In this document: in pieces, positions 13,273 to 56,104 of the stretch
How the letters are laid out: the number at the start of each line of letters is the position of its first letter
How positions within the stretch are numbered: the stretch's first letter is position 1
DNA from: Betaproteobacteria bacterium
Lineage (GTDB): Bacteria; Pseudomonadota; Gammaproteobacteria; Burkholderiales; Casimicrobiaceae
Reading direction: 5' to 3'
Assembly (NCBI GenBank): GCA_029884335.1
Contig: JAOUIA010000003.1
Location: 1 to 64,000, forward strand
Length of the DNA: 64,000 bases
Notes under the pieces: model-generated
Seen by the model: only the letters and a program-made list of their open reading frames with translations
Databases searched by the model: none
Told to the model about the DNA's origin: nothing
Position numbers and translations under genes: made by a program

Positions 13273-13359
13273 GGAAAGTAGGGTCAGACTCGACTTTCCA
13301 CGCACTGCGGCGCGAGGCGCAGTCGAGCAGCAGGAAAGTCGAGTCTGACCCTACTTTCC
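13273..13359. repeat. REP-like inverted pair, cluster 1 (2 copies)
   Basis: Two 27-bp copies of the window's REP-like family face each other: 13273-13299 (GGAAAGTAGGG + TCAGACTCGACTTTCC) and 13333-13359 in reverse orientation, with 33 bases between, so the RNA could form a long hairpin. The pair fills most of the gap between accC and prmA. The second copy ends two bases before the prmA ATG. Confidence 0.9.
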
Positions 13360-13361
13360 CC

Positions 13362-14252
13362 ATGTCGTACACCGCACTCTCCTTCACCTGCCCCGGCTCC
13401 GACGCGGATGCGTGGGGCGACGCGCTGCTCGGGACCGGTGCGCTGGCGGTCGAGTCGACGGATGCGCAAGCGGGCACCGCGCAGGAGGTGGCGCAGTTCG
13501 CCGAGCCCGGTCTGCCGGGTTTCGTCGCGTGGCCGGTCGCCCGCGTGACCGCGCTGTTCGCGGCCGAGATCGACGCGGGGGCGGCGCTTGCCGAGGCGGC
13601 GGGCGCGTTGGGGCGCGCGACGCCGGCGGCGACGAGCGCGACGCTGGAGGAGCAGGACTGGGTGCGCGCCACGCAGGCGCAGTTCGGCCCCATCCGCATC
13701 GCCGAGGACTTCCACGTGGTACCGACCTGGTGCGAGCCGCCCCCTCCCGGCACGGCGATCCGCCTCGATCCGGGCCTCGCGTTCGGCACGGGCTCGCATC
13801 CGACCACGCGCCTGTGCCTCGAGTGGCTGCACGCGACGCTGCCGCGCGGCGCGAGCGTGCTCGACTATGGCTGCGGCTCCGGCATCCTCGCGATCGCCGC
13901 GGCGAAACTCGGCGCGGGCGAGGTCGCCGGCACCGACGTCGACGCGCAGGCGCTCGCGGCGAGCCGCGCCAACGCGGCGGCGAACGCGGTTCGCGCGAGC
14001 TTCGCCCGGCCCGAGGGGCTGCGCCCGGGGCCGTTCGACGTCGTCGTCGCGAACATCCTCGCCAACCCGCTCGTGCTGCTTGCGCCGGCGATCGCCGCGC
14101 GCGTGGCGCGCGAGGGGAGGCTCGCGCTATCCGGCATCCTTGCGGACCAGGCGGCCGAAGTGATCGCTGCGTACGCGCCTTGGATTACACTTCGCGCCTG
14201 GCGCACGGGCGAAGGCTGGGTGCTCCTCGCAGGCGCCCGGGGCCTCGCGTGA
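13362..14252 (+). CDS. prmA: Ribosomal protein L11 methyltransferase
   Basis: A 296-residue SAM-dependent enzyme that trimethylates ribosomal protein L11. The N-terminal substrate-recognition domain is followed by RLDPGLAFGTGSHPTTRLCLEWL, the SAM motif VLDYGCGSGILAIAAAKLGA and VVANILANPL, the NPPY-like element of the family. The ATG comes two bases after a REP-like repeat, so the normal SD position (TACTTTCCCC) is repeat sequence with no purine-rich SD. Weak or leader-coupled initiation is expected. Confidence 0.94.
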   Translation: MSYTALSFTCPGSDADAWGDALLGTGALAVESTDAQAGTAQEVAQFAEPGLPGFVAWPVARVTALFAAEIDAGAALAEAAGALGRATPAATSATLEEQDWVRATQAQFGPIRIAEDFHVVPTWCEPPPPGTAIRLDPGLAFGTGSHPTTRLCLEWLHATLPRGASVLDYGCGSGILAIAAAKLGAGEVAGTDVDAQALAASRANAAANAVRASFARPEGLRPGPFDVVVANILANPLVLLAPAIAARVAREGRLALSGILADQAAEVIAAYAPWITLRAWRTGEGWVLLAGARGLA

Positions 14253-14290
14253 AGCGGGATCGATGAGGATGGCGTGACGTGCACGTCGCG

Positions 14291-15124
14291 ATGACCGAAG
14301 AGAAGTTCACGCGCTGCCCCGGCTGCCGGACCGTGTTCCGCGTCACCGCAGCGCAGCTCGCGCTGCGCGAGGGGCAGGTGCGTTGCGGCCACTGCCGGAC
14401 GATCTTCGACGGCACGGCGCGGCTGGTCAGGCTCGCGCCCGGCAGCGCGCCGCCGCCAGACGAGGAAGCCAACGGCCCGCTGACGGTGACGCTGCGCAGC
14501 GCGCGCGCGCTCGAGCCGGTGACGGCCGAAGCTCCGGCACACGCCGCCCGCGCGGTGGCGGAGGCCGCGAAGGCCGAGGCGCAGCCCGAGCAGCACGTCG
14601 ACTACGACCAGCGGTTCGCCTGGGACCGGCCGCGGCGTCGCTCGCGCGCGGTCACGCTGGCCTACGTCGCGGGCTTCGTGCTGCTCGTCGCGTTGTTCGT
14701 CGCGCAGCTCGGCTGGCACTACCGCGACCAACTGGCGGCCCACTTCCCGTCCACGCGTCCGCTGCTCGAGCGCCTGTGCGTCGCGGCCGGCTGCACGATC
14801 AAGCCGCTGCGCGACATCGGATGGCTGGCGATCGACGCCTCGGACCTGCAGGCCGACCCCGCGCACAAGGGCCTGCTGATCCTCACCGCCACGGTCCGCA
14901 ACCGCGCGCCCTACGCCGTCGCGTACCCGCACCTCGAGCTCACGCTGACTGACGCGCAGGACGCCGTCGTCGTGCGCCGGGCGCTCGCGCCAGGCGAGTA
15001 CCTTGGGGCGACGGTGGACGCCGGCAAGGGCATCGCCGGCAACGGCGAGGTGGCCGTGCGGCTGTTCGTCGACGCCAGCGCGACCGTGCAATCGGGCTAT
15101 CGGGTCTACCTGTTCTACCCCTGA
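14291..15124 (+). CDS. Zinc-ribbon domain, DUF3426 membrane protein
   Basis: A 277-residue protein. An N-terminal zinc ribbon (TRCPGCRTVFRVTAAQL then RCGHC, CxxC...CxxC) is followed by a disordered Ala/Glu linker, one transmembrane helix (about residues 120-140, AYVAGFVLLVALFVAQLGW) and a DUF3426 domain with NRAPYAVAYPHLELTLTDAQ. The family commonly follows prmA in Betaproteobacteria; its role is unknown, and the topology would put the DUF3426 part in the periplasm. The start at 14291 is chosen because the ribbon begins a few residues later; a GTG at 14279 is possible. Confidence 0.82.
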   Translation: MTEEKFTRCPGCRTVFRVTAAQLALREGQVRCGHCRTIFDGTARLVRLAPGSAPPPDEEANGPLTVTLRSARALEPVTAEAPAHAARAVAEAAKAEAQPEQHVDYDQRFAWDRPRRRSRAVTLAYVAGFVLLVALFVAQLGWHYRDQLAAHFPSTRPLLERLCVAAGCTIKPLRDIGWLAIDASDLQADPAHKGLLILTATVRNRAPYAVAYPHLELTLTDAQDAVVVRRALAPGEYLGATVDAGKGIAGNGEVAVRLFVDASATVQSGYRVYLFYP

Positions 15125-15264
15125 GGGCCGGGGCACCGCACCCCGTTGGTGCGCGCATCCGCGAGTCCGGCTGGCCGAAGGAGGTGCCTGCCGCCCTTCG
15201 GCCCAACGCGAGGCGCCTGTTACGCGCCAGGCGCGTGCATCGGAAACGTGCGGCGATGCCGGCT

Positions 15265-15279
15265 GCACCGAGTTGGCGC
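15265..15279 (+). promoter_or_regulatory. Candidate NtrC enhancer site 1 (GCAC-N7-GCGC)
   Basis: GCAC, seven bases, then GCGC: one mismatch from the NtrC half-site pattern GCAC-N7-GTGC. Its centre is about 138 bases before the predicted glnA start point and 31 bases from the second site. Confidence 0.6.
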
Positions 15280-15295
15280 GCGCATCCGGACAGGC

Positions 15296-15310
15296 GCACA
15301 ATACCGGTGC
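15296..15310 (+). promoter_or_regulatory. Candidate NtrC enhancer site 2 (GCAC-N7-GTGC)
   Basis: An exact GCAC-N7-GTGC palindrome centred about 107 bases before the predicted sigma-54 start of glnA. Together with the first site it gives the spacing (31 bp, three helical turns) known for paired NtrC sites at enteric glnA. Confidence 0.72.
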
Positions 15311-15336
15311 GACGCCTGCCTGGCCGGGTACGCGAA

Positions 15337-15362
15337 GTTTGAACATTATATTTTGAAACAAT
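15337..15362. promoter_or_regulatory. AT-rich patch between enhancer and sigma-54 promoter
   Basis: About 25 bases rich in A and T (TTTGAACATTATATTTTG) stand out in this GC-rich genome. The position between NtrC sites and a sigma-54 promoter is where a DNA-bending protein such as IHF often binds; the match to the IHF consensus is only partial. It could also contain a weak sigma-70 promoter. Confidence 0.4.
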
Positions 15363-15383
15363 GGCTTGCGATGTGCCGCGGCG

Positions 15384-15399
15384 TGGCACGGTTATCGCA
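15384..15399 (+). promoter_or_regulatory. Sigma-54 promoter of glnA
   Basis: TGGCAC, five bases, TCGCA matches the -24/-12 consensus TGGCAC-N5-TTGCW with a single mismatch. Both essential dinucleotides (GG at 15385-15386, GC at 15397-15398) are correctly spaced. Transcription should begin near 15410, leaving a leader of about 47 bases before glnA. Confidence 0.85.
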
Positions 15400-15456
15400 A
15401 AGGACTCCGGCCTGTTCTTGCAGCGCAACCAACACCGAACCGAAGAGGGAGATCCC

Positions 15457-16872
15457 ATGGCCATGACCGGCGCCGACGTCCTCAAGATGCTCAAGGAGAA
15501 GGACGTCAAGTTCGTCGACCTTCGCTTCACCGATACTCGGGGCAAGGAGCAGCACGTCTCCGTGCCGGCACGTTACTTCGGCGCCGACAAGTTCGAGTCG
15601 GGTCACGCGTTCGACGGCTCGTCGATTGCCGGCTGGAAGGGCATCCAGGCCTCCGACATGCTGCTGATGCCCGACCCGAACACCGCGGTCGTCGACCCGT
15701 TCATGGACGAGACGACGGTCAACATCACGTGCGACGTGATCGAGCCGTCCGACGGCAAGGGCTACGAGCGCGACCCCCGGTCGCTGGCCAAGCGCGCCGA
15801 GGCCTACCTCAAGTCCACCGGCATCGGCGACGTCGCCTACTTCGGGCCCGAGCCGGAGTTCTTCGTCTTCGACGCGGTCGAGTGGAACGTCGACATGTCC
15901 GGGAGCTACTGCAAGATCTTCTCCGAGGAAGCGGCCTGGTCGACCGGCGAGAAGTTCGAGGGCGGCAACATGGGTCACCGGCCGACCGTCAAGGGCGGCT
16001 ACTTCCCGGTTCCGCCGGTCGACTCGCTGCAGGACGTGCGCTCGGCGATGTGCCTCGCGCTCGAACAGATGGGCGTCGAGGTCGAGGTGCACCACCACGA
16101 GGTCGCGACCGCCGGCCAGTGCGAGATCGGCACGAAGTTCGCGCCGCTGGTGCAGCGCGCCGACTGGCTGCAGATCCTGAAGTACGTCGTGCATAACACC
16201 GCGGCCGCGTACGGCAAGACGGCCACGTTCATGCCCAAGCCCATCGTCGGCGACAACGGCTCCGGCATGCACGTCCACCAGTCGGTGTGGAAGGACGGCA
16301 AGAACCTGTTCGCCGGCGACGGCTACGCGGGGCTCTCGGAGTTCGCGCTCTACTACATCGGCGGCATCATCAAGCACGCGCGCGCGCTCAACGCGATCAC
16401 CAATCCCGGCACGAACTCGTACAAGCGCCTCGTCCCCGGCTTCGAGGCGCCCGTCAAGCTCGCGTACTCGGCGCGCAACCGCTCGGCGTCGATCCGCATC
16501 CCCTACGTCAGCAACCCGAAGGGGCGCCGCATCGAGGTGCGCTTCCCGGACCCGACGGCCAACGCCTACCTCGCGTTCTCGGCGATGCTGATGGCGGGGC
16601 TCGACGGCGTGCAGAACAAGATCCACCCGGGGGACCCGGCCGACAAGAACCTCTACGACCTGCCGCCCGAGGAGGACAGGAAGATCCCGACGGTGTGCAG
16701 CTCGCTCGACATGGCGCTCGACTACCTCGACCGCGACCGCGAGTTCCTCACGCGCGGCGGCGTGTTCACCAACGACCTCATCGACGCGTTCATCGAGCTC
16801 AAGATGGAGGAGGTGACGCGGTTCCGGATGACCACGCATCCGGTGGAGTACGACATGTACTACAGCCTGTAG
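15457..16872 (+). CDS. glnA: Glutamine synthetase type I
   Basis: A 471-residue dodecameric cytosolic enzyme that makes glutamine from glutamate, ammonia and ATP. Family motifs are plain: [31 protein letters not shown], the [17 protein letters not shown] loop, [10 protein letters not shown] and [10 protein letters not shown], which holds the adenylylated tyrosine, so activity is probably also controlled by GlnE. GAGGGAGA precedes the start. It lies downstream of the sigma-54 promoter and NtrC sites, with ntrB and ntrC in the same direction beyond one small gene. Confidence 0.98.
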
Positions 16873-16980
16873 GGCGTCCCCGGCCCGGGGCTCGCGGCGA
16901 ACGCGGCGAGGGGCGGGCGCGACGGGCGAGCGCTCCCGCGCGCTTCTGCCCGCGCGCGATGTTCGCTACACTCGGGCGTG

Positions 16981-17523
16981 ATGTCACTCGATGACCGGCT
17001 ACGCTCTTCGCTTCGCACGCTCGCGGCCGCCGCCCTCGCGCTCGCGTGCGCGAGCGCGCTCGCGCAGTCGCTGCAGTCCAAGTCGCGCGAACTGGGCTGC
17101 ACGGACGCGCCCCGCGTCGTGGCCGGCACGAACCTCTACAAGTGCACGACGGCGACCGGCAACGCGGCGTTCTTCAACGTGCCGGACGCCGGCGAGCGGC
17201 CTGCGCCCAAGCGCGCTCCGGCCGTCGCGCCGGCGCCCGCCGCCGCGCCGAGCGCCGCCGCCAGCTTCCCGCGGGTCGACGCGAACACGCAGAAGGGCCG
17301 CGACGAGATGCGCCGCAAGGTGCTGCAGGACGAGCTTGCGGTCGAGGAGAAGCTGCTCGCCGAGGCGCGCGGCGCGTACGGCAACGGCGCGCCGCCGGCC
17401 CTGGCCGACGAGCAGTCGCAGCCGCAGCGCTACGCCGAGCGGATCGCGCGACTGCGCCAGTCGGTCCAGCTGCACGAGCGCAACGTCGAGGCGCTGCGCA
17501 AGGAGCTCGGACTCCCGCGCTGA
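16981..17523 (+). CDS. Exported DUF4124-like protein, 180 aa
   Basis: A periplasmic protein with a signal peptide ending near ACASALAQ. The early mature region (ELGCTDAPRVVAGTNLYKCTTATGNAAFFNVP) holds two cysteines and resembles DUF4124-type domains. An Ala/Pro linker follows, and residues 105-180 are a charged helix likely to coil (EMRRKVLQDELAVEEKLLAEA ... LHERNVEALRKELGLP). Proteins of this kind often sit between glnA and ntrB in Betaproteobacteria; the function is unknown. A possible -10 (TACACT) lies just upstream. Confidence 0.75.
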   Translation: MSLDDRLRSSLRTLAAAALALACASALAQSLQSKSRELGCTDAPRVVAGTNLYKCTTATGNAAFFNVPDAGERPAPKRAPAVAPAPAAAPSAAASFPRVDANTQKGRDEMRRKVLQDELAVEEKLLAEARGAYGNGAPPALADEQSQPQRYAERIARLRQSVQLHERNVEALRKELGLPR

Positions 17524-17658
17524 CGGCGCCGATGCAGGAAGCGTTCGCGCGCCCCCGGGCGGCGCGACGCCGTCGGATGAAACGACCCCCACGCTCGCCA
17601 TGCTCGCTGCCCCCGGAGGGGGCGGGTCAGTGGCTTGGGACGGCCCGGCGCCACTGAC

Positions 17659-18765
17659 ATGAGCGCCGCCCTGCCCGCGTACGTCGCAGCGGACAGCGCG
17701 CTCCCGCCGGCGGGCCTCGACGCGCTCGCCACGGCCGTGCTGTTCCTCACCGGCGAGCGTCGCATTGCTTACGCGAACCCCGCCGCCGAGAACCTGCTCG
17801 AGATGTCGCGCGCGCGGCTCGCCGGCACGGCGATCGGCGCGCTGTTCGCCGACGCGCGGCTGCTCTCGGCTGCGATCGACCACGCGGTCGCCGCCGGCAC
17901 GTCGTACACCGAGCAGGACGTCGAGCTTGCCGTTGTCGGCAAGGGGAAGCTGCACGTCGCGGTCACCGTGACGCCCGTGGCGGCAGGCGACGTCGCGCTG
18001 GCCGTCGAGCTTCGGCAGATCGACCAGCAGCTCAGGGCCGCGCGCGAGGAGCGCCAGCTCGAGCAGCAGCAGGCGAACCGCGAGCTGATCCGCAACCTCG
18101 CGCACGAGATCAAGAACCCGCTCGGCGGCATCCGCGGCGCCGCGCAGCTGCTCGAGCGCGAGCTCGGCGCGCCGCACCTGTCCGAGTACACGCAGGTCAT
18201 CATCGGCGAGGCCGACCGCCTGCAGTCGCTGGTCAACCGGCTGCTCACGCCGCATCGGGTGCCGGCGTACCGGCGCATCAACGTCCACGAGCTGCTGGTG
18301 CGCGTGAAGGGGGTCGTGCAGGCCGAGTTCCCGGGGGTGCGCATCGACGCCGACTTCGACATCTCGCTGCCCGACGTGGAGGCCGACGCCGAGCAGCTGA
18401 CGCAGGCGGTGCTCAACGTCGTGCGCAACGCCGCGCAGGCGCTGGCGACGACCTCCGATCCGGCGATCGTGCTGCGAACGCGCGTGGCGCGCTACGTCAC
18501 GCTCTCGCGCAAGCTGCACCGCCTCGCGCTGGAGGTCGACGTCGAGGACAACGGGCCGGGCGTGCCGCCCGCGCTGCGCGAGCGCATGTTCTACCCTCTG
18601 GTTTCGGGGCGCGAGGGCGGCAGCGGCCTGGGCCTCACCATCGCGCAGACCTACGTCGCCCAGCACGGCGGGACCATCGACTGCGACAGCGAGCCGGGCC
18701 GCACCGTGTTCCGCATCGTGCTGCCGTTCGACGCCGCACGGCCGCAGGCGGGGGGGCAGCCGTGA
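17659..18765 (+). CDS. ntrB: Nitrogen regulation sensor kinase/phosphatase NtrB
   Basis: A 368-residue cytosolic histidine kinase. A PAS-like sensor domain (residues about 15-125) is followed by the H-box NLAHEIKNPLGGIRGAAQLLE with the phosphorylated His, then the ATPase N-box NVVRNAAQAL, the G1 box DVEDNGPGVPP and GGSGLGLTIAQTYVAQHGG. There is no transmembrane segment, as expected for NtrB, which is controlled through PII. It phosphorylates NtrC. Its stop is followed within two bases by a tandem palindromic repeat that separates it from ntrC. Confidence 0.95.
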   Translation: MSAALPAYVAADSALPPAGLDALATAVLFLTGERRIAYANPAAENLLEMSRARLAGTAIGALFADARLLSAAIDHAVAAGTSYTEQDVELAVVGKGKLHVAVTVTPVAAGDVALAVELRQIDQQLRAAREERQLEQQQANRELIRNLAHEIKNPLGGIRGAAQLLERELGAPHLSEYTQVIIGEADRLQSLVNRLLTPHRVPAYRRINVHELLVRVKGVVQAEFPGVRIDADFDISLPDVEADAEQLTQAVLNVVRNAAQALATTSDPAIVLRTRVARYVTLSRKLHRLALEVDVEDNGPGVPPALRERMFYPLVSGREGGSGLGLTIAQTYVAQHGGTIDCDSEPGRTVFRIVLPFDAARPQAGGQP

Positions 18766-18766
18766 C

Positions 18767-18919
18767 CCCTCACCCCCGACCCCTCTCCCCGCTTGCGCGG
18801 GGCGAGGGGAGCATGAGCCCTCACCCCCGAGCCCCCTCCCCGCTTGCGCGGGGCGAGGGGAGCATGAGCCCTCACCCCCGACCCCCCTCCCCGCTTGCGA
18901 TGGGCAAGGGGAGTACGAG
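18767..18919. repeat. Three tandem copies of a 51-bp palindromic unit between ntrB and ntrC
   Basis: The units 18767-18817, 18818-18868 and 18869-18919 begin CCCTCACCCCCGA and contain the hairpin CTCCCCGCTTGCGCGGGGCGAGGGGAG in broken form (CTCCCCGC ... GCGGGGcGAGGGGAG). The third copy is diverged (TTGCGATGGGCAAGG). Each unit can fold, so the RNA between ntrB and ntrC carries three stable hairpins. The inverted repeat at 22996 shares the core. Confidence 0.9.
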
Positions 18920-18979
18920 CCCGCAGGGCCGTCCCGAGGGCGAACGAGCCCCGCAGCGCGCAGCGCGGAGGGTAGTCCA

Positions 18980-20455
<1,476 letters not shown>

Positions 20456-20471
20456 CGGCGCGCGCGGGCGC

Positions 20472-22154: not shown

Positions 22155-22194
22155 TGCCGGTCTCTCACGCTTGCGGCTGGCGCCGCCCGGCCGC

Positions 22195-22971: not shown

Positions 22972-22995
22972 GGCGCGATTGTACGCAGCGCCGTT

Positions 22996-23153
22996 CCCTC
23001 ACCCCCGGCCCCTCTCCCCGTGACGGCGGGCGAGGGGAGACCACCACTCCCCTCTCCCGCCGTCACGGGGAGAGGGGCCGGGGGTGAGGGCCGTCAGGCG
23101 GGAGAGGGGCCGGGGGTGAGGGCCGTCAGGCGGGAGAGGGGAGGGGGTGAGGG
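22996..23153. repeat. 44-bp-arm inverted repeat with two extra partial repeats
   Basis: Arm 22996-23039 (begins CCCTCACCCCCGGCCCCTCT) and arm 23047-23090 are reverse complements with about one mismatch, separated by seven bases. Two shorter direct copies of the right end follow (about 23091-23123 and 23124-23153), each ending GGGGGTGAGGG. The CCCTCACCCCCGRCCCCTC core is shared with the ntrB-ntrC tandem repeat, so both belong to one family of palindromic repeats. Confidence 0.9.
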
Positions 23154-23714: not shown

Positions 23715-23725
23715 CGGACCTCCCG

Positions 23726-27530: not shown

Positions 27531-27574
27531 CGCGTGGCCCTGCGCGCGGGGCGCCGTGCCGCGTGCCGCAGGAG

Positions 27575-31514: not shown

Positions 31515-31753
31515 GGAAAGTAGGGTCAGACTCGACTTTCCGGCCTACACCCGGCCGACGGAAATGAGGGTCAGACTCGACTTTCCGGCTTGCGCCCGGC
31601 CGATGGGGCTGTCCCCAAAGGGGAATCGGGTCTGACTCTCACCTTCCTGGCCCGGGGCCGGCCGATGCTGCCGTCCCTGGAAGAAAGTCGAGTCTGACCC
31701 TACTTTTCGCTCAAGCCGGAAAGTCGGGAAAGTCGAGTCTGACCCTCATTTCC
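31515..31753. repeat. REP-like cluster 2 (5 copies)
   Basis: Copies at 31515-31541 (GTAGGG type) and 31560-31586 (TGAGGG type) face right; a degenerate copy is at 31622-31647; copies at 31682-31708 and 31727-31753 face left. They fill the entire gap between the convergent genes surA and the glycosidase-like gene. Such an array of opposed palindromes could act as a bidirectional terminator or RNA stabiliser, as known for BIMEs. Confidence 0.9.
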
Positions 31754-38853: not shown

Positions 38854-38854
38854 T

Positions 38855-41730: not shown

Positions 41731-41806
41731 CGCAAGGTCCTCGGCGGAAGTCGCGACAGTCGCCCGTGTCGCTGTTGCCGCGGCACGGTGGCGAATCCAC
41801 GCTCCG

Positions 41807-42286: not shown

Positions 42287-42298
42287 GCGGTTCTCCAT

Positions 42299-42685: not shown

Positions 42686-42743
42686 CGGTAACACCCGCCT
42701 GCGCGGTGCGTGCCGCGGCGCGTGCGCCGCGCCACGCCACCGC

Positions 42744-44705: not shown

Positions 44706-44773
44706 CGCGTGTCCTTTCGAGGCCGTGTTCAGTCAGGGTGCGCTCGACCGTCGGATGCGGAGCATCCGGTTCG

Positions 44774-47694: not shown

Positions 47695-47725
47695 GATGGA
47701 GGCTCCTCGGGGGGTGGGACGGCGG

Positions 47726-48496
47726 TCAGGACGTGCGCAGCGCGCCGGGGGCGAGCTTGCTCGCCAGCACGATGAGCACCAACGTGAGCAGCATGAGAAG
47801 GGTTGACACGGCGTTGACCTCCGGAGTGACGGAGATCTTGATCATCGAGTAGATCTGCAGGGGCAGCGTCTGCGTCCCGGCGCCGGCGGTGAAAAACGTT
47901 ATCACGAAGTCGTCGATCGACAGCGTGAAGGCCATCAGCGCGCCGGCGATCACCGCGGGCATGATGAGCGGCAGCGTGACCAGCCGGAATGCCTGGGCCG
48001 GGGTGGCGCCGCAGTCGCGGGCCGCCTCGGTCAGGCTCTCGTCCATCCCGGCCAGCCGCGAGCGGACGACGATCGCGACGAAGCCAATGCAGAAGGCGAT
48101 GTGCGCCAGCGTCACCGAGACGATCCCCAGCGTGAAGTTGAGGAGGACGAAGAAGAGCAGCAGCGAGACGCCCATCAGGATCTCGGGAATGGCGATGGGC
48201 GTCAGCACCAGGACCGGCAGCAGGCGGCTGCGGTAGCGGTGCATGGCGAAGCCGGCCATCGTCCCCAGGACCGTCGACACGAGGCTCGCGACGGCGGCGA
48301 TGGCCAGCGAATTGACCGCCGCCTGGATCATCTCGTCGTTGGCGAAGAGCCTGCGGTACCAGTCGAACGTGAAGCCGACCCACTCGGCGTTGAGGCGCGA
48401 GTCGTTGAACGAGTAGACGACGACGATGACGAGCGGGACGTAGAGGAACAGGTAGCCCGCCACCGCCGCGGCGTAGAGGGCCCAGGAGCGCTTCAC
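47726..48496 (-). CDS. potC: Polyamine ABC transporter permease, PotC/PotI-type
   Basis: A 256-residue inner-membrane permease with six helices. FLYVPLVIVVVYSFNDSR is typical of PotC/PotI, and the EAA loop EAARDCGATPAQAFRLVTLPLIMPAV contacts the ATPase. It is 32 bases after potD in the genome and 11 bases before potB. Confidence 0.93.
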   Translation of the reverse strand: MKRSWALYAAAVAGYLFLYVPLVIVVVYSFNDSRLNAEWVGFTFDWYRRLFANDEMIQAAVNSLAIAAVASLVSTVLGTMAGFAMHRYRSRLLPVLVLTPIAIPEILMGVSLLLFFVLLNFTLGIVSVTLAHIAFCIGFVAIVVRSRLAGMDESLTEAARDCGATPAQAFRLVTLPLIMPAVIAGALMAFTLSIDDFVITFFTAGAGTQTLPLQIYSMIKISVTPEVNAVSTLLMLLTLVLIVLASKLAPGALRTS

Positions 48497-48506
48497 GGCA
48501 CGTCCC

Positions 48507-49418
48507 TCACGCGGTGCGGCGCGGGCGCGACACCCACGCGGCGAGCCCGGCCAGCGCCAGCGCGATGGCGGTGAGCACGATGGACAGCACGCTGCCGAAC
48601 GGCCAGTCGCGGGTCTCGAGGAACTGCTGCTTGATCAGGTTGCCGATCAGCGTGTCCTCGGTGCCGCCGAGGATGTCGGGGATCGCGAAGATGCCGAGCG
48701 CCGGGATGAAGACGAGCGCGGCGCCGGCCCAGACGCCGGGCAGCGAGAGCGGAAACGTCACGCGCCAGAACCGCTGCCAGGCGTTCGCGCCGAGGTCCTG
48801 CGCGGCGTCGAGCAGCGCCGGGTCGTGCTTCTCGAGGTTCGCGTAGAGCGGCAGCACCATGAAGGGCAGGTGCACGTACACGAGGCCCACCAGGACTGCG
48901 AACGAGCTGAACAGCAGCGAGACCGGTTCGAAACCGAGGGGCTCGACGACCGCGTTGACGGCGCGGCTCAGCGCGGACTGCGGCCCGAGGATGATCATCC
49001 ACGCGTAGACGCGGATCAGGAAGTTGCTCCAGAACGGCAGGATGACCAGCAGCATGAGGAGGTCGCGGTACTTCCTGGGGCTGCGGGCGACCAGCATCGC
49101 CAGCGGGTAGGCGAGCACCAGGCAGCACAGCGTGGTGATGCCTGCATAGACGACCGACTTGGCGAACACCTCCCAGTAGATCGGGTCGCCGGCGAGGCGC
49201 TCGTAGGCCTCCAGCGTCAGGTTCGCCTTGCCGTCCTCGAACAGCGGCGCGAGTCCGCCGTACTCGCCCGGCGGCGTGAACGACGCGACCACCATGATCA
49301 GCGCCGGGATCGCGAAGAACACCAGCAGGTAGGCGAGCGGCGGGCCGCTCACGAGCCACCGGCCCGTGCCGCGGTCGCGCGCCTGCCAGGAGGGGTGGCG
49401 TGCCCCGGACGCGCTCAC
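48507..49418 (-). CDS. potB: Polyamine ABC transporter permease, PotB/PotH-type
   Basis: A 303-residue inner-membrane permease. After a cytosolic leader come FFAIPALIMVVASF, LLMLLVILPFWSNFLIRVYAWMIIL, and the EAA loop DAAQDLGANAWQRFWRVTFPLSLPGV. A GTG at 49418, ten bases after the potA stop, is the probable start; an upstream ATG at 49481 would overlap potA by 50 bases and encode nothing conserved. Confidence 0.92.
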   Translation of the reverse strand: MSASGARHPSWQARDRGTGRWLVSGPPLAYLLVFFAIPALIMVVASFTPPGEYGGLAPLFEDGKANLTLEAYERLAGDPIYWEVFAKSVVYAGITTLCCLVLAYPLAMLVARSPRKYRDLLMLLVILPFWSNFLIRVYAWMIILGPQSALSRAVNAVVEPLGFEPVSLLFSSFAVLVGLVYVHLPFMVLPLYANLEKHDPALLDAAQDLGANAWQRFWRVTFPLSLPGVWAGAALVFIPALGIFAIPDILGGTEDTLIGNLIKQQFLETRDWPFGSVLSIVLTAIALALAGLAAWVSRPRRTA

Positions 49419-49428
49419 GCCGGCGCCC

Positions 49429-50526
49429 TCAGCCGGGGATGAAGTGCCCGGCATCGAACCGCCACGCGGCTTCCACCGCATCGCCGGCCTCGAAGAACTT
49501 CGTGCGCCCGGCCTCGGAGTTGGCGAGCAGCGCCTCGACGCGCTGGCCGCCGGTGGCCTCCACGACGTACATGGTGACGTCGCCCATGTACAGGAAGTCG
49601 CGGATGTGGCCCGCGCAGTGGTTGTCGTCCGCGCCTTGCGTCACCGAGGACGAGATGCGGACCTTCTCCGGACGCACCGCGACCGAGCCCTTGCTGCCGG
49701 CGGGCACGCTCGCCTGGGTGAGCGTGCGGATGCGCCCGAGCCCCGCGACGTCGAGATCGACGAGCGATCCGCCGCCCGAGGGCGCCGACGCGGCGACGAC
49801 GCCGTCGAAGAGGTTGCAGTGCCCGATGAAGTCGGCGACGAAGCGGGTCCGGGGGAAGCCGTAGATGCGCGAGGGCTCGTCGAGCTGCTCGACGCGGCCG
49901 TGGTTCATCACGGCGATCCGGTGCGACAGGGCCAGCGCCTCGGTCTGGTCGTGCGTGACGTACACGAACGTGATGCCGACGTCCTTCTGCAGATTGATGA
50001 GCTCGAGCTGCAGCTGTTCGCGCAGCTTGGCGTCCAGCGCTGCGAGGGGCTCGTCGAGCAGCAGCACGCGCGGCTTGGTGACGAGCGCGCGTGCGATCGC
50101 CACGCGCTGCTTCTGCCCGCCGGAGAGCTCGTGCGGGTAGCGGTCCGCCTTGCCCGCGAGCTGCACGCCCTCGAGCGCGGCCCAGACCTGGCGGTCGGTC
50201 TCGGCGCCGCCGACCTTCGCCATCTTGAGCGGGAAGGCGACGTTGCCCGCCACCGTCATGTGCGGGAACAGCGCGTAGCTCTGGAACACCGTCCGCACGG
50301 GCCTGCGCTCGGGCGGGTCGCCGGCGAGGTCCTTGCCGTCGAGCACGATGGCGCCACCGTCGGGCAGGTCGAAGCCCGCGATCATCCGCAGCAGCGTCGT
50401 CTTGCCGCAGCCGGACGGCCCGAGCAGCGTGAAGAATTCGCCGGCCTCGATGGCCAGGCTCACGTCGTCGACGGCAGCGAAGTCGCCGAAGCGACGCGTG
50501 ACGTTCCTGATTTCGAGCAGCGCCAT
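49429..50526 (-). CDS. potA: Polyamine ABC transporter ATPase
   Basis: A 365-residue ATPase with Walker A GPSGCGKTTLLRMIAGF, signature LSGGQKQRVAIARALVTKP, Walker B VLLLDEPLAALDAKLREQ, VTHDQTEALALSHRI, and a C-terminal TOBE domain with GSVAVRPEKVRI. It energises import of spermidine or putrescine. It opens the operon; a TAGAAT at 50563-50568 on the minus strand is a candidate -10. Confidence 0.95.
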   Translation of the reverse strand: MALLEIRNVTRRFGDFAAVDDVSLAIEAGEFFTLLGPSGCGKTTLLRMIAGFDLPDGGAIVLDGKDLAGDPPERRPVRTVFQSYALFPHMTVAGNVAFPLKMAKVGGAETDRQVWAALEGVQLAGKADRYPHELSGGQKQRVAIARALVTKPRVLLLDEPLAALDAKLREQLQLELINLQKDVGITFVYVTHDQTEALALSHRIAVMNHGRVEQLDEPSRIYGFPRTRFVADFIGHCNLFDGVVAASAPSGGGSLVDLDVAGLGRIRTLTQASVPAGSKGSVAVRPEKVRISSSVTQGADDNHCAGHIRDFLYMGDVTMYVVEATGGQRVEALLANSEAGRTKFFEAGDAVEAAWRFDAGHFIPG

Positions 50527-50562
50527 CGCCGCGGCGGGCTCCGGGGGAATTTGTGCAGCGCG

Positions 50563-50568
50563 ATTCTA
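50563..50568 (-). promoter_or_regulatory. Candidate -10 box TAGAAT of the pot operon
   Basis: Read on the minus strand, TAGAAT lies 36 bases before the potA start in the 229-base gap to the divergent gene at 50756. The -35 region is not consensus. The rest of the gap shows GC-rich palindromes only. Confidence 0.4.
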
Positions 50569-50755
50569 AAGCATACGCGTCTGGGCGAGGCACGGGATTT
50601 GCAGCGCTTCTTCCTCGCTCCCGCAGGATCGAGCGGCGGCCCCGTCGCGTGACGCTGTACGTCACCGGTTGTCGCATCGCGTCGAGACGCGGGCCCGTCC
50701 TCGGCCGAGCGGCCGAAATCGGCCCGCGGCGGGCGCGTGGTAACTTGGATTCCCC

Positions 50756-51502
50756 ATGGCCGACAAGCCCGCCGCCTCCTCCCTCCTCGCACGGCTGCGC
50801 CAGCAGTCCGACGCCGTGCGGGCGACCGAGTCGCCGCGCCGGTCGATGGAGGAGATCCTCCTCGACATGGACCAGCGGCTGTGGCGCGCCTACCGCTGGA
50901 TCGACGAGGCGCTCGCCCACCTCGGCGTCATCAAGCCGGTCGTCGCGCACGAGTTCCGCGTCGAGTCCTACCTCACGCTCTCCGGACTGCAGTTCGAGCA
51001 GGGCTTCGTCTCGTACCGGCGCCGTCATCTTGCCGGTCAGGAGCTCCTCGACTACGTCGAACTGTTCTACCGGCTGTCGTCGACCAAGCCGGTCAGGCTG
51101 AAGGTGCAGCCGACCGCGGTCGCCGAGGTCGACGGACGCCTGCGCACCGCCGGCATGCAGTTCCGCTACGAGGCCGAGGTCGACGAGCGCAAGGTGATCA
51201 AGTCGGGCATCTTCACCGTGACGCCGGCGGTGACCGGCTCGGTGCGCTTCAATCCCGACTACAGGCTGCACGGCATCAACGTGCGGCTGACCAACGTCGA
51301 TCGCCTCGAGACGGTCGACCTCGAGTTCAAGCCGGAGCAGGTCGACGAGGGCGCGCTCGAGGATCTCGTGCGCCTGGTGCTCGGCGAGTCGAACGCGTTC
51401 CTGCACCGCGCTCCGCTTGCCGGCGTGGGCGCGGGGAAGAAGCCCGCCGCGATCGAGGAGCCGGTCGTCTACCGCATCGAGAAGACGATCCGCAGCCGCT
51501 GA
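50756..51502 (+). CDS. Conserved hypothetical protein, 248 aa
   Basis: A soluble cytosolic protein without signal peptide or hydrophobic segment. Landmarks: MEEILLDMDQRLWRAYRWIDEALAHLGVIKP, FRVESYLTLSGLQFEQGFVSYRRRHLAGQELLDYVELFYRL, and a beta-rich middle (VRLKVQPTAVAEVDGRLRTAGMQFRYEAEVDE). The family was not recognised. It stands alone on the plus strand between divergent potA and convergent ubiB, ending three bases from the ubiB stop. Confidence 0.75.
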   Translation: MADKPAASSLLARLRQQSDAVRATESPRRSMEEILLDMDQRLWRAYRWIDEALAHLGVIKPVVAHEFRVESYLTLSGLQFEQGFVSYRRRHLAGQELLDYVELFYRLSSTKPVRLKVQPTAVAEVDGRLRTAGMQFRYEAEVDERKVIKSGIFTVTPAVTGSVRFNPDYRLHGINVRLTNVDRLETVDLEFKPEQVDEGALEDLVRLVLGESNAFLHRAPLAGVGAGKKPAAIEEPVVYRIEKTIRSR

Positions 51503-51505
51503 CCT

Positions 51506-53035
51506 TCAGGCCGGCCTCAACAGCAGCACGACGACCAGCGCCGCGAGCAGCAAGGACAGCACCGCCATCCAGCGGTTGCGCCACCGCTGCGCGGCGGCGA
51601 GCTCGTGCACCGAGTCCGGCGTGTTCGCCGGCGGTGCCGACAGCCGCTGGTGCAGCAGCCGCGGCAGCTCGGGGAGCGCGGCCACGAGGTAAGGCGCCTC
51701 CGCGAGGAGACGGCGCTGCAGCGCGGGCAGCCCGATGCGGTTCTCCATCCAGCGCTCGAGGAACGGCTTCGCGGTGACCCACAGGTCGAGGTCGGGGTCG
51801 AGCATGCGCCCCAGCCCCTCGATGTTGAGCAGCGTCTTCTGCAGCAGCGCCAACTGCGGCTGCACCTCGACGTTGAAGCGACGCGACGCGCGGAACAGCT
51901 GCATCAGCACCTTGCCGAGCGAGATTTCCTTGAGCGGCCGGTCGAAGATCGGCTCGCACACCACGCGGATCTCGGTCTCCAGCTCGTCGACGCGCGTGTG
52001 GGCAGGCACCCAGCCCGACTCGATGTGCGCGGTGGCCACGCGGCGGTAGTCGCGGCGGAAGAAGGCGAGGAAGTTCTGCGCGAGGTAGCTCTGGTCGCGC
52101 TCCGAGAGCGCGCCGACGATGCCGAAGTCGAGCGCGACGTACTTGCCGAAGTGCGCCGGGTCGACCGACACGAAGATGTTGCCCGGGTGCATGTCGGCGT
52201 GGAAGAAGCCGTCGCGGAACACCTGCGTGAAGAAGAGCTCCACGCCGGCGCGCGACAGGCGCTTGAGGTCCACGCCCGCCTCGACCAGCCGCTCGACCTG
52301 CGCGATCGGGATGCCGGTCATGCGCTCCATCACCATGACCTCGCTCGTGCACCAGTCCCAGTGGACGCCGGGCACCAGCAGCAGCGGCGAGTGCTGGAAG
52401 TTGCGGCGCAGCTGCGCGCAGTTCGCGGCCTCGCGCATGAGGTCGAGCTCGTCGGCGAGGTTCTTCTCGAACTCGTGCACGACCTCGCGCGGCCGCAGCC
52501 GCTTGCCGTCCGACCACAGCTTCTCGGCCAGCATCGCGCCGGCCATCATCAGCTGGACGTCCTTGTCGATCACCGCGCGGATGCCCGGCCTCAGCACCTT
52601 GACCGCCACCGGCGTGCCGTCGGGGAGCTTCGCGAAGTGCACCTGCGCCACCGAAGCCGAGGCGACCGGCTCGCGCTCGAACTCCGCGAAGACCTGCGCC
52701 AGCGGCTTGCGGTAGGCGCGCTGCAGCGTGGCCTCGACGTCGCTCCACGGGAACGGCGGCACGCGGTCCTGCAGCTTCGCGAGCTCGTCGGCGATGTCGG
52801 GCGGCAAGAGGTCGCGGCGCGTGGAGAGCACCTGCCCGAACTTGACGAAGATCGGCCCGAGGCTCTCGAGCGCCAGGCGCAGCCGCACCGCGCGCGGCTC
52901 TCCCAGGTCGCGCCAGAACGCGACGCGGTTGATCATCGGCCGCAGCCAGCGCACGCGCTCGTGGCCGAGCAGGAACTCGTCGAGCCCGTAGCGCTGCGCG
53001 ACGAGGAGGATGCGGGCCAGGCGCAGGAGGCGCAT
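51506..53035 (-). CDS. ubiB: Ubiquinone biosynthesis protein UbiB
   Basis: A 509-residue atypical kinase/ATPase (ADCK family) needed for coenzyme Q synthesis. Signature motifs are present: [14 protein letters not shown] (KxGQ), the alanine-rich loop [15 protein letters not shown], catalytic [12 protein letters not shown], and LDFGIVGAL. Two transmembrane helices at the C-terminus ([16 protein letters not shown]) anchor it. It closes the ubi group; a REP-like cluster lies between it and ubiJ. Confidence 0.95.
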
Positions 53036-53045
53036 GGCCCCGATT

Positions 53046-53175
53046 GTAAATGAGGGTCAGAGTCGCATTTCCGCGCCGTCGGGGCGGCTTCGCGAGAGGA
53101 AACGCGGCTGTGACCCTCGTTTCTCGCCGGCGACGGAAGCGCCGGTTCGGAAATGCGGCTCCGGCCCTACTTTCG
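53046..53175. repeat. REP-like cluster 3 (3 diverged copies)
   Basis: Copies at 53046-53072 (TGAGGGTCAGAGTCGCATTTCC), 53098-53124 and 53149-53175 share the 27-bp layout, but their core is TCAGAGTCGCATTTCC-like or reads GGAAATGCGGCTCCGGCCC in reverse. All three carry the same changes, so they form a subfamily distinct from clusters 1, 2 and 4. The third copy includes the ubiJ stop codon. Confidence 0.85.
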
Positions 53176-53751
53176 CTCGAGGTCGGCGATGCGCTGCGCG
53201 AGCGCGTCGACGCGCTGCGCGAGATCCGCGTTCTGCGCGGCGAACGCGCGGGCCTCCTCGCCGCGCGCGAGCAGGCCCGCCTCGTCGCGCGCGTAGCTGA
53301 CCACGTTGTCGGCGAGGTGCTCGCCCACGTACCCCGGGAGCGAGAGGATGCTCCGGCCCGCGTCCGCCAGCCGTTGTCCCACGACCGGGCCGAACGCCTT
53401 GGCGAACGCACGCTCGACGAACCAGGGCAGCGTCTGCGCGAGGTCCCTCAACGTCGCGGCGAGCGCGGGGTCGCCCTTCGCGGTGACGAGCCCGTCCCAG
53501 CGCGCCGGCTCGGCGAGCAGCGCCGGGACGTCGAACGGCGACAGGTGGAACTCCGCGTCGGGCGTGGCGGGGCGCGAATGCGCGTCCTCCAGCGTGCCGT
53601 CGGCGCCAATGGCGAACGCGACGCTCACCGGTCCGCTTGCGAGCGTGAACGTGCGGCCGGCGTGCGCGGCGAGCCTCTCGCGCGCCCACGACTCGTCGCC
53701 CAGCAGGCGGTTGGCGAGCCCGCGGCCGAGAGCGCTCGCCGGATCGGCCAT
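53167..53751 (-). CDS. ubiJ: Ubiquinone biosynthesis accessory factor UbiJ (SCP2 domain)
   Basis: A 194-residue lipid-binding accessory factor of the Ubi complex. The SCP2-like domain spans about residues 15-120 (GPVSVAFAIGADGTLEDAH, HLSPFDVPALLAEP), and the C-terminus is a helix likely to coil (RGEEARAFAAQNADLAQRVDALAQRIADLERK). The final Arg, Lys and TAG stop are read from the repeat copy at 53149-53175. It lies between the Tim44-like gene and ubiB, the usual order. Confidence 0.88.
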   Translation of the reverse strand: MADPASALGRGLANRLLGDESWARERLAAHAGRTFTLASGPVSVAFAIGADGTLEDAHSRPATPDAEFHLSPFDVPALLAEPARWDGLVTAKGDPALAATLRDLAQTLPWFVERAFAKAFGPVVGQRLADAGRSILSLPGYVGEHLADNVVSYARDEAGLLARGEEARAFAAQNADLAQRVDALAQRIADLERK

Positions 53752-53780
53752 GGCGTCGCTGCCTGCCGCCGCCCGCGCCG

Positions 53781-54737
53781 TCAGGCGTGACCGGCTGCCG
53801 GCTCGCCCTGCTGGATGCCCGCGAGCAGCCAGCCGCTCTTGCCGTCGACGGGCTTCACGAGGTGCCAGACCTCGTCCAGCGGGCGCGGCATCGGCTCGCC
53901 GTCCTCGCGCACGAGCCCGCGGAAGTGCACGCTCGCCCAGTGCTCGCCGCCGTCGGTGACGACCTCGACCAGCTCGGGGTTGAGCGCGACGATCTCCGTG
54001 GGGTGCTCGCCTCGCGTCGGCGGCATCTCCGCGGCGATCTGCGCGAACAGCGCAGGCGTCATCACGTCGGCGAGCGCCTCGCGGTCGCCGCGGTCGTGCG
54101 CTGCCTGCAGGCGCGCGAACTGGTGCTTTGCCTCGAGCAGGAAGCGCTCCGCGTCGAAGCCGGGCGGGACGTTGCGCCGCGGCTGCACCGCGGCGGACAC
54201 CGGCGTCACGGCGGGCGGCGGCGGCGGCGCGTAATCACGCGGAGCGTTCGAGGACGTCCCGGCGGTGGCGCCGGCATAGCGGATCGGACCCTGCGACGCG
54301 TTGCGGCGCGCGAGGATCGCGCGGACTGCGACGATGGCGATCAGCACCAATCCGGCGATGAGCAACGCGCTCAGCAGCTCGTCGGCTATGCCCAGGTACG
54401 AAGCCAGCGCGGCGAGCCCGAGCCCGGCGGCGAGACCGGCGAGCGGGCCCATCCACCGCCCGAGGCCGCTCTTCGGCGCAGCCGCGGCTGCTCCGGCTTG
54501 CGCAGCGCCCGCCGGAGCCTGCGCCGTGCCCTGGCGCGGCATCACGGGGTTGGCGGCCGCTCCGCTCGGCGCGGCCTGCGCCGGCGCCGCGGATGGCGGC
54601 GTCGCCTGCTGCGCGGGGGCCGTGCGCTGCGCGCCGAGGCTGCGACCGCCGCTCATGCGACGCGCGTCGGCGAAGTCGGCGGCGACCAGCGCGGCGCCTG
54701 CGGCGAAGGCGAGTGCGAGGGTGAGCGGTCGGTTCAT
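53781..54737 (-). CDS. Tim44-like domain membrane protein, 318 aa
   Basis: A signal peptide (ends DFADA) is followed by a Pro/Ala/Gln-rich region, two hydrophobic segments (about residues 92-112 and 120-140), a Pro-rich linker and a Tim44-like domain from about residue 195 (FDAERFLLEAKHQFARLQAAHDRGDREALADVMTPALFAQ). In bacteria the domain is a small NTF2-like fold that may bind lipids or proteins; the function is unknown. It is a constant neighbour of ubiE and ubiJ in Betaproteobacteria. Confidence 0.88.
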   Translation of the reverse strand: MNRPLTLALAFAAGAALVAADFADARRMSGGRSLGAQRTAPAQQATPPSAAPAQAAPSGAAANPVMPRQGTAQAPAGAAQAGAAAAAPKSGLGRWMGPLAGLAAGLGLAALASYLGIADELLSALLIAGLVLIAIVAVRAILARRNASQGPIRYAGATAGTSSNAPRDYAPPPPPAVTPVSAAVQPRRNVPPGFDAERFLLEAKHQFARLQAAHDRGDREALADVMTPALFAQIAAEMPPTRGEHPTEIVALNPELVEVVTDGGEHWASVHFRGLVREDGEPMPRPLDEVWHLVKPVDGKSGWLLAGIQQGEPAAGHA

Positions 54738-54780
54738 GTGGGCAGTCCTCCCGGCGATTGCATTCAGTCAGTTGGGGGCG

Positions 54781-55515
54781 TCAGAACACCCTTCCAAGGT
54801 GCACGGCGACCACCCCCGCCATCAGGTTGTGGTATTCGACCCGATCGAAGCCCGCCCGTTCCATCATGGACTTGAGCTCCTCCTGGTCGGGGTGCATGCG
54901 GATCGACTCGGCGAGGTAGCGGTAGCTGCCGTCGTCGCCGGCCACCAGCTTCCCCAGCCGGGGCAGCACGTTGAAACTGTACCAGTCGTAGGCCGGCGCC
55001 AGCGGCGCCCAGACGCGCGAGAACTCGAGCACCAGCGCGACGCCGCCGGGCTTCAGCACGCGGCGCATCTCGGCGAGCGCCGCCTCCTTGCGCGTCACGT
55101 TGCGCAGCCCGAAGCCGATCGAGACCGCGTCGAACGCGCGGTCGCGGAACGGGAGCTTCTCGGCGTCGCACTGCACGACCGGGAGGTTGCAGCCGCCGTC
55201 GAGCAGCTTGTCGCGGCCCTCCGCGAGCATCGCGTGGTTGATGTCGGACAGCACGACCCGCCCCTGCTCGCCCACGGCCTTCGCGAACAGCCGCGCGAGG
55301 TCGCCCGTGCCGCCGGCGAGGTCGAGCACGGCGGCCCCGGGGCGGAGGCCGGCGACGTGCACCGCGTAGCGCTTCCACCACCGGTGCAGGCCGGCGGACA
55401 TGAGGTCGTTCATCAGGTCGTAGCGCGAGGCGACGGAGTCGAACACGCCGCGCACGCGCTTCGCCTTGTCGTCCGCGGGTACCTGCTCGAAGCCGAAGTG
55501 CGTCCTGTCGTCCAC
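54781..55515 (-). CDS. ubiE: Ubiquinone/menaquinone C-methyltransferase UbiE
   Basis: A 244-residue SAM-dependent methyltransferase that C-methylates 2-polyprenyl-6-methoxy-1,4-benzoquinol. [36 protein letters not shown] is the family start, [20 protein letters not shown] the SAM-binding motif, and IGFGLRNVT and [14 protein letters not shown] are conserved. The probable start is the GTG at 55515, 20 bases after the DUF971 stop. Confidence 0.95.
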
Positions 55516-55535
55516 CGGAGGCCGCCCCGCGCGCG

Positions 55536-55895
55536 TCACGGCTCGCGGCTCGCGCCGGCCTGCGCCAGCCGGTCGAGGTAGCGCTGCCACAGCTCGTCGC
55601 GCTCCGCGCCGAGCCCGTAGAGGTACTCCCACGAATAGATGCCGGTGTCGTGGCCGTCGGAGAACGTCGGGCGGATCGCGTAGTGGCCGACCGGCTCGAC
55701 CTCGCTGATCGTCACGTCGCGCTTGCCCGTCTGCAGCGTCTCCTGCCCGGGGCCGTGCCCGCGCACCTCGGCCGAGGGCGAGTACACGCGCAGGAGCTCG
55801 TAGGGCAGCTTGAAGCTCGCCCCGTCGGCGAACGCGATCTCGAGGATGCGCGAGGCCTGGTGGAGCTTGATTTCCGTGGGGGCGGGCGTTGACAT
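55536..55895 (-). CDS. DUF971 domain protein (gamma-butyrobetaine-hydroxylase-like N-terminal domain)
   Basis: A 119-residue small protein. [42 protein letters not shown] and the metal-site-like [14 protein letters not shown] are typical of DUF971. The domain occurs fused to 2-oxoglutarate oxygenases and alone, as here, where it is regularly found before ubiE in Betaproteobacteria. The function is not established. Confidence 0.9.
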
Positions 55896-55987
55896 GGGGG
55901 GCGCGGCGCGTGGCCAGCCGGGAAGGCTAGCACAGCGCGCGCGCCGCGACCCGGACGGCGGGCGGGGGACCCTCGCCTTCGTCGCGC

Positions 55988-56104
55988 GAAAAGTAGGGTC
56001 AGACTCGACTTTCCGGAAATGAGGGTCAGACTCGACTTTCCCGGGGCGACCGCGCCGCGCCGTCGCCTGGTGGCGCGGGAAAGTCGAGTCTGACCCTCAT
56101 TTCC
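55988..56104. repeat. REP-like cluster 4 (3 copies)
   Basis: Copies at 55988-56014 (GTAGGG type) and 56015-56041 (TGAGGG type) are directly adjacent and face the same way; a third at 56078-56104 faces back. The last base of the third copy is also part of the pilU stop codon. The gap between pilU and the DUF971 gene is 92 bases beyond these repeats. Confidence 0.9.

What the first reader, a model, noticed from the sequence alone, without database searches (positions are those of the whole stretch)
13273..56104. A 27-bp REP-like family: 13 copies in four clusters at gene ends
Units at 13273-13359, 31515-31753, 53046-53175 and 55988-56104 share GGAAAGTAGGG or GGAAATGAGGG at one end and TCAGACTCGACTTTCC at the other. 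Copies often face each other and could form hairpins. All lie between genes. This resembles REP/BIME repeats mobilised by RAYT (Y1, TnpA-REP) transposases, but no such gene is in the window. The two end variants (GTAGGG, TGAGGG) both place a stop triplet at the same spot.
Basis: partly seen in the sequence, partly recalled or inferred. Interest (0 to 1): 0.7.

Follow-up and report, generated by a model that had tools for sequence, protein, structure and literature searches.

The report
Transposase-linked inverted repeat pairs (REPIN-like)
The short repeats closely resemble the end sequence of a transposase gene elsewhere in the same genome; they stand as mirror-image pairs at gene ends and often supply the gene's stop codon, which makes them a new family of a known kind of bacterial mini-element.

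Summary
The repeats are real. The window holds 13 units; 10 match a 19-base core at 3 or fewer mismatches, 0 in shuffles. The genome holds 152 at 2 or fewer, control 0. It has one Y1_Tnp gene, flanked by near-copies of the unit, two at each end, inverted.

In anatomy it is nearer the TIRYT branch (GGGGWSAS terminal repeats) than classical GTAG REPs: GTAG lies partly inside the stem and is not kept in relatives. In the 138 units examined, neighbours always face inward (46 '+-', 0 '-+'), usually around a ~33-bp spacer of mostly unrelated sequence. Two other unit families, in relatives, match the transposase ends of four of the genomes that carry them; both show a ~52-bp spacing class. Clusters abut gene 3' ends, and the unit's TAG often is the neighbour's stop codon, a habit already published for GTAG REPs. 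Congeners show one apparently empty site and other unit families at two of the same sites. New member of a known kind. Movement is inferred, not shown.

The parts
13273..13299 (+). unit 1 of a two-unit pair, 45 bp after the accC stop
   Evidence: exact core match; accC by NCBIfam TIGR00514 over cut-off; context
13333..13359 (-). unit 2 of the pair, ends 2 bp before the prmA start codon; 33-bp spacer between the units
   Evidence: prmA by NCBIfam TIGR00406 over cut-off
31515..31541 (+). outer unit, 3 bp after the stop of the left gene
31560..31586 (+). second + unit, TGAG variant
31620..31646 (-). degenerate unit (approximate borders)
   Evidence: read from the sequence; not matched
31682..31708 (-). 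- unit
   Evidence: 1 mismatch
31727..31753 (-). outer - unit, TGAG variant, 9 bp from the stop of the right gene
53046..53072 (+). older GCATTTCC-type unit; partly similar sequence stands at the same place in congener G015
   Evidence: 3 mismatches; alignment
53098..53124 (-). degenerate unit (approximate borders)
   Evidence: read from the sequence
53149..53175 (-). degenerate unit whose TAG (53167-53169, minus strand) is the predicted stop codon of gene 53167-53751(-)
55988..56014 (+). outer + unit
56015..56041 (+). second + unit, directly abutting
56078..56104 (-). - unit; its last base is the G of the TAG stop of gene 56104-57276(-). Congener G015 shows no unit here

Best explanation
The repeats are non-autonomous, REPIN-like mini-elements. 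Each complete element is a pair of inverted 27-base units about 33 bp apart. They are related to, and presumably copied by, the single Y1 HUH transposase (RAYT/TIRYT type) found in this genome, whose gene on contig C101 carries two such units at each end as ~50-bp terminal inverted repeats. Each unit can fold in single-stranded DNA into an imperfect hairpin: outer stem GGAAAGT/ACTTTCC, an A.G mismatch, and an inner stem-loop GGGT-CAG-ACTC. Inferred steps: the transposase recognises the core GGGTCAGACTC inside a stem of its own type, cuts single-stranded DNA beside it, and copies the whole pair into new places; insertions survive mainly at gene 3' ends, where the unit's TAG or TGA closes the neighbouring reading frame. 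Shown here: similarity to the transposase ends, copy number, orientation order, geometry, position at predicted gene ends, use of the unit's stop codon, match between transposase ends and dispersed units in four relatives, presence or absence between species. Not shown: cutting, movement, effect on expression.
For: 152 copies at <=2 mismatches, control 0. One Y1_Tnp gene, E 3.2e-11; HVH at residues 60-62 and Y120-x3-N124-P125, with H60, H62, Y120, N124 and P125 invariant in 23 homologues; AlphaFold2 model pLDDT 89, best PDB match 4er8, the E. coli REP transposase bound to its REP, E 2.9e-8, 16% identity. Ends of the gene: AAGTAGGGTCAGACTCGATTTCTCCGC[C/T]CGCGGGGAATGGGGTCAGACTC on both sides, inverted. 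Specificity: GGGTCAGAGACGACTTTCC at <=1 mismatch is in 5 of 21 chosen genomes (G013 48, G031 41, G029 7, G019 3, G007 2); GGGACGYACCACGTTTTC in 2 of 21 (G011 71, G035 36). G031, G029, G011 and G035 carry that same sequence at their transposase ends. Orientation: 46 '+-', 0 '-+', 22 '++', 20 '--'; 0 '-+' of 79 neighbouring pairs in four more genomes. Three spacer pairs on different contigs score >=12, 0.2 expected. One apparently empty site in congener G015. Hairpin of a whole pair: z -12.8.
Against: No movement, excision or transcript data. Nearest genomes are other species (at best ~90% identity over accC, up to 95% in one gene), so insertion borders are approximate and no target duplication could be read. 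In the genus, 3 of 12 genomes without a detected transposase have >=10 units, and 3 of 10 with one have fewer than 10 units of this type; those three no-gene genomes are 84-86% complete, and the other unit families were searched only in 21 chosen genomes. G013, with most copies of the second type, has no detected transposase, and the ends of the G019 and G007 genes do not match it. In one search, 9 of 30 homologues gave no convincing end repeat, and that call had no shuffled control. NCBIfam REP_Tyr_transpos scores 63.5, below its cut-off of 80; a single-sequence PDB search found nothing at E 0.001. The transposase sits on a 5-kb contig of a draft assembly. Most spacers show no similarity, so copying of whole pairs rests on a few related spacers. 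Outer-stem covariation inside this genome is clear only at pair 6-22, weak at 3-25 and 7-21, absent at 1-27 and 2-26; pairs 4-24 and 5-23 hardly vary. The TGAG form folds no better than shuffles (z -0.5). G011 has a second spacing class.
Confidence: 0.88

Rival explanations
1. Host-selected gene-end elements: the pairs are kept mainly because hairpin and stop codon help end translation or protect or terminate mRNA, and their spread by the transposase is now incidental.
For: Strong bias to gene 3' ends: 21 of 45 clusters convergent, 2 of 45 divergent. 20 of 22 gene ends that run past position 5 of the outermost unit stop at its TAG or TGA, 1/3 expected by frame. The pair folds strongly.
Against: Of 20 congeners whose accC-prmA junction could be read, 17 show no unit, G014 one degenerate piece, G001 and G008 clusters of other types; G015 has none at 55988. 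So these genes do without this unit in most species. Purifying selection against harmful insertions would give the same bias.
Confidence: 0.2
2. Single units insert independently next to one another instead of moving as a pair.
For: Most spacers are unrelated in sequence; tandem ++ and -- units exist.
Against: Strict inward order and a preferred spacing (28 of 46 gaps are 32-36 bp) would not follow; three spacer pairs on different contigs are alike.
Confidence: 0.1
3. Canonical GTAG-REP/BIME system of the E. coli or Pseudomonas type.
For: GTAG occurs in most units (AAGTAGGG); a Y1 transposase flanked by near-copies of the repeat; imperfect palindrome.
Against: G and T of GTAG pair inside the outer stem (pairs 6-22, 7-21) and other tetranucleotides stand there in relatives; no alternating orientation.
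Confidence: 0.1

Closest known systems
TIRYT / TIRtron (Di Nocera, De Gregorio, Rocco 2013, PMC3733652; abstract, sections 14 and 16 and passages seen)
   Same: Y1 tyrosine transposase flanked by long terminal inverted repeats sharing GGGGWSAS; TIR copies dispersed as dimers and clusters
   Different: This unit was not seen in the parts read (figures and additional files not held). Matching of ends and dispersed copies between genomes, strict inward order and the ~52-bp spacing were not described in the parts read
REPIN-RAYT of Pseudomonas fluorescens SBW25 (Bertels and Rainey 2011, PMC3116915, passages seen; also PMC8049555, passages seen)
   Same: Inverted doublet with diverse spacer and fixed spacing, forms a long hairpin, extragenic, linked to a RAYT gene
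   Different: 71 and 110 bp peaks there, ~52 bp here; tandem REPIN arrays there, +..+ -..- clusters here
GTAG REP / BIME (Nunvar 2010, PMC2817692, passages seen; PMC8266576, passages seen)
   Same: Repeat flanks its transposase in inverted orientation; GTAG REP termini often supply a TAG stop to flanking ORFs (PMC3733652, passage)
   Different: GTAG precedes the palindrome there; here it straddles the stem and is not conserved in relatives; BIMEs alternate orientation
TnpAY1 subclass 2.1 (Quentin et al. 2018, PMC6006769; section 20 and passages seen)
   Same: That paper says 2.1 is probably the TIRYT group; class 2 signature Y-x3-NP; GGGG[AT][CG]A[CG] in flanking repeats
   Different: That paper found no REP-like sequences near subclass 2.1 genes; here hairpin-forming units flank the gene and are dispersed. 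Whether this transposase belongs to 2.1 was not tested by a tree

Membership tests
REPIN | two inverted repeats with a short diverse spacer that can form a hairpin, many copies, intergenic | tested here: met
   46 '+-' pairs, 28 with 32-36 bp spacer; pair hairpin z -12.8; 8 of 138 units with middle base in predicted CDS
REPIN | a RAYT gene in the genome flanked by the repeat | tested here: met
   near-copies (3 mismatches to the core) at both ends:
REPIN | duplicated by the RAYT | not testable with these tools
   needs an assay or strain comparison
RAYT (class 2 Y1 HUH) | PF01797 domain, HUH and Y-x3-NP motifs | tested here: met
   fold match 4er8. Against: NCBIfam REP_Tyr_transpos 63.5 bits, cut-off 80
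TIRYT | terminal inverted repeats with GGGGWSAS | tested here: met
   inner end units read GGGGTCAG; dispersed units mostly read AGGGTCAG, one base off. In named homologues a looser motif is in 43 of the 52 end repeats scoring >=30, of 79 loci tested
TIRYT / subclass 2.1 | C-terminal helix-turn-helix extension | tested here: inconclusive
   Pfam: Y1_Tnp in 23 of 23 members; other weak matches in 1 to 3 members, none an HTH; model shows four helices after residue 150
TIRYT / subclass 2.1 | position in the TnpAY1 tree | not tested
   reference sequences not at hand
canonical GTAG REP | unpaired GT[AG]G at the foot of the stem, conserved | tested here: not met
   GT of GTAG in the outer stem; other tetranucleotides in relatives
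BIME | alternating orientation in arrays | tested here: not met
   0 '-+' of 88 neighbouring pairs in G000 and of 79 in four other genomes

The most novel reading that the evidence does not exclude
A branch of RAYTs with hairpin ends (conserved GGGTCAG core, freely co-varying arms) copies mini-elements whose two units stand about 52 bp, five DNA turns, centre to centre and face inward. The transposase complex would then measure distance and orientation, while the spacer sequence, and even the unit sequence, can change. A genome's pairs would be readable as the current or past specificity of its transposase.
Probability: 0.33. Interest if true: 0.6.

Novelty: new member of a known kind. Interest (0 to 1): 0.4.

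Why it matters
The experimental RAYT work that I saw (passages of PMC8266576) rests on enzymes of E. coli, Stenotrophomonas and Marinomonas. Here a TIR-type transposase has about 150 hairpin-forming units, mostly in pairs, and relatives carry matched but different sets. If it belongs to subclass 2.1 (not tested), it answers a survey that reported no REP-like sequences there. The sets are natural material to ask how such enzymes recognise their repeats and why a spacing is kept. The stop-codon use shows how a mobile element can settle at a gene end with little damage.

Tried and rejected
First gene prediction followed antisense frames in this GC-rich DNA and was discarded; the second, seeded on accC and prmA, was used. 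Cutting preference for CT beside the insertion: 20 of 25 stops at -3 to +4 from units are preceded by C, 120 of 264 in background (p 4e-4; the 25 were counted by eye), but position-wise CT upstream of 93 outer units is hardly raised (best -6, p 0.006 uncorrected), so not claimed. Spacer as its own hairpin: mean -10.3 against -10.0 for shuffles, nothing. Phage carriage: 0 exact matches to a 24-mer in viral contigs. Exact motif in print: four 11-mers gave 33 papers, 20 listed; none of those listed is on bacterial repeats by title, 13 were not seen. Other paper searches. The orthologous C106 junction was fetched but not analysed. The stem control was lenient (best motif per flank picked only for the real set); one search repeats it fairly.
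Full report
Observation. The window (contig C51 of an unnamed 3.66-Mb, 120-contig genome) holds 13 units in four clusters. At <=3 mismatches to the 19-base core there are 10, with none in 100 shuffles. The genome holds 77 + 75 at <=2 mismatches and 0 of the reversed control; the listing of places was capped. I fetched 40 stretches, most of them around listed matches, together with the window 379 kb, and found 138 units in 50 clusters there; 31 shifted or reverse-complement self-matches were dropped from 169 raw hits. The 138 include one palindromic relic (C89:15687) and three end units of the transposase itself. This is a sample around listed places, not the whole genome, and units beyond 4 mismatches are not counted.

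The transposase. The genome has one PF01797 match, on C101. Its gene (229 aa from the conserved start) has HVH and YIELNP and belongs with Y1 HUH transposases. NCBIfam REP_Tyr_transpos scores 63.5 bits, below its cut-off of 80, and a single-sequence search of PDB sequences found nothing at E 0.001. The AlphaFold2 model (pLDDT 89) matches best the E. coli REP transposase 4er8, then IS608 and ISDra2 enzymes. Both ends carry a 50-base inverted repeat made of two tandem units. The dispersed units differ from these ends by a few bases (ATTTCTC against ACTTTCC).

Anatomy. The unit folds as GGAAAGT-A-GGGT-CAG-ACTC-G-ACTTTCC (z -3.2 for the TAG form; -0.5 for the TGAG form). Inside this genome, 75 distinct units support the stem clearly at pair 6-22 and weakly at 3-25 and 7-21; 1-27 and 2-26 vary without support, 4-24 and 5-23 hardly vary. 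Over the seven pairs 71% of cells are paired, against 23-46% when one side is slid by 1 or 2 bases. In relatives the arms change together: GAAATGC/GCATTTC, AGAAGTC/GACTTCT, TTAAATG/CATTTAA, TAAGTG/CACTTA, though many relatives' units in that call have stems under 5. In the flanks of 80 named homologues (the best 80 of 574) 123 motif-bearing units were found in 74 loci; taking the one nearest the gene in each flank, 41 have a perfect stem of 5 or more, 33% against 12.7% when arms of different loci are mixed. The search motif GGG[TA]C[AG]G occurs 5.1 times per kb, read towards the gene, within 200 bp of it and 0.35 per kb per strand beyond 500 bp. End repeats score above the 95% point of mixed flanks in 45 of 79 loci; all loci share the motif, which makes that control strict.

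Order and spacing. Neighbouring units are '+-' 46, '++' 22, '--' 20, '-+' 0. 28 of 46 central gaps are 32-36 bp, about 52 bp from core to core; the rest range from 6 to 103. In four other genomes 0 of 79 neighbouring pairs are '-+', and distances of 49-56 bp make up 10 of 12 (G031) and 7 of 9 (G013) for a unit close to ours, and 8 of 10 (G035) and 8 of 19 (G011) for a very different unit. G011 also has a second class at 16 and 23-25 bp, against a single fixed geometry. Spacers are mostly unrelated; 16 of 496 comparisons score >=8 against 2.6 expected, and three >=12 against 0.2.

Position. In my own gene prediction (386 genes, no outside annotation) 8 of 138 units have their middle base in coding sequence, which covers 89%. 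Clusters: 22 tandem, 21 convergent, 2 divergent, 2 inside, 3 at edges. Of 64 gene 3' ends taken as facing a cluster, 19 stop at a unit's TAG and 1 at its TGA. Of the 22 ends that run past position 5 of the outermost unit, 20 use that stop, against 1/3 by frame (p 3e-8; 18 of 20 without the relic C89:15687); one of the other two stops at the TAG of the second unit. TAG is the stop of 35 of 62 facing genes and 78 of 264 others. That GTAG REPs often supply TAG to neighbours is in print (PMC3733652, passage), and REPs near stop codons are reported to lower translation in E. coli (PMC12306157, passages).

Relatives. A transposase match (E <= 1e-10) is in 30 of 61 genomes, the unit at <=2 mismatches in 16 of 61. 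In the genus (22 genomes with own), 7 of 10 with the gene and 3 of 12 without have >=10 units; this link alone is weak. By my reading, 20 of 30 homologues have an end repeat with a motif of this kind, 1 (L095) another repeat and 9 none. Two other end sequences, searched in 21 chosen genomes, occur in 5 and 2 of them. G031, G029, G011 and G035 carry that type at their own transposase; G013 (48 copies) has no detected transposase (84% complete), and G007 (2) and G019 (3) have no matching end. At accC-prmA (names by NCBIfam) 20 congeners could be read: 17 show no unit, G014 one degenerate piece, G001 and G008 clusters of other types; G020 gave no ortholog. A scan for the 7-base motif finds it on both strands only in own, G001 and G008; 7 others have isolated matches on one strand, in a stretch that runs into prmA. 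At 31515 congener G015 carries a different pair with a ~32-bp spacer, and four others (G019, G014, G003, G005) show no unit in the 200 bp printed; at 55988 G015 shows no unit and the same TAG stop; the 53046 cluster is old, with partly similar sequence in G015.

Reading. This is a REPIN-like population tied to a TIR-type RAYT. It works like REPIN-RAYT and, by its tested features, belongs with TIRYT/TIRtrons rather than canonical GTAG REPs. The C-terminal HTH of subclass 2.1 was not found by Pfam, so that subclass stays open. The genome is probably from Pseudomonadota, since by title most of the 80 named homologues are; this is inference.

Noticed in passing
L124 (G008) and L120 (G001), accC-prmA junction: Two other species carry clusters of different unit families at this same junction, as if it were a repeated landing place.
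   Followed up: partly
L252 (G015:C4 about 51810-51926): Ortholog of the 31515 site holds a different inverted pair (GGGGCCAGAGCCGTAAC type) with a ~32-bp spacer; a similar unit flanks the G019 transposase.
   Followed up: partly
G011: C143:15322, C189:45755 and 49580, C221:8267, C255:9660: Five pairs 16 bp apart would form about 34-bp palindromes with no spacer, a second geometry class.
   Followed up: no
window 13333-13362: The unit ends 2 bp before the prmA start codon, so it occupies the place of a ribosome-binding site.
   Followed up: no
L031:1908-1929: The longest reading frame of the transposase starts inside its own end unit (ATGGGGTCAGACTCG); the conserved start is 21 codons later.
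   Followed up: no
L178, L180, L166 flanks: These homologues have an extra, partial copy of the 5' arm (AATCAATAGGG-like) just outside the complete end unit, like the doubled units here.
   Followed up: no
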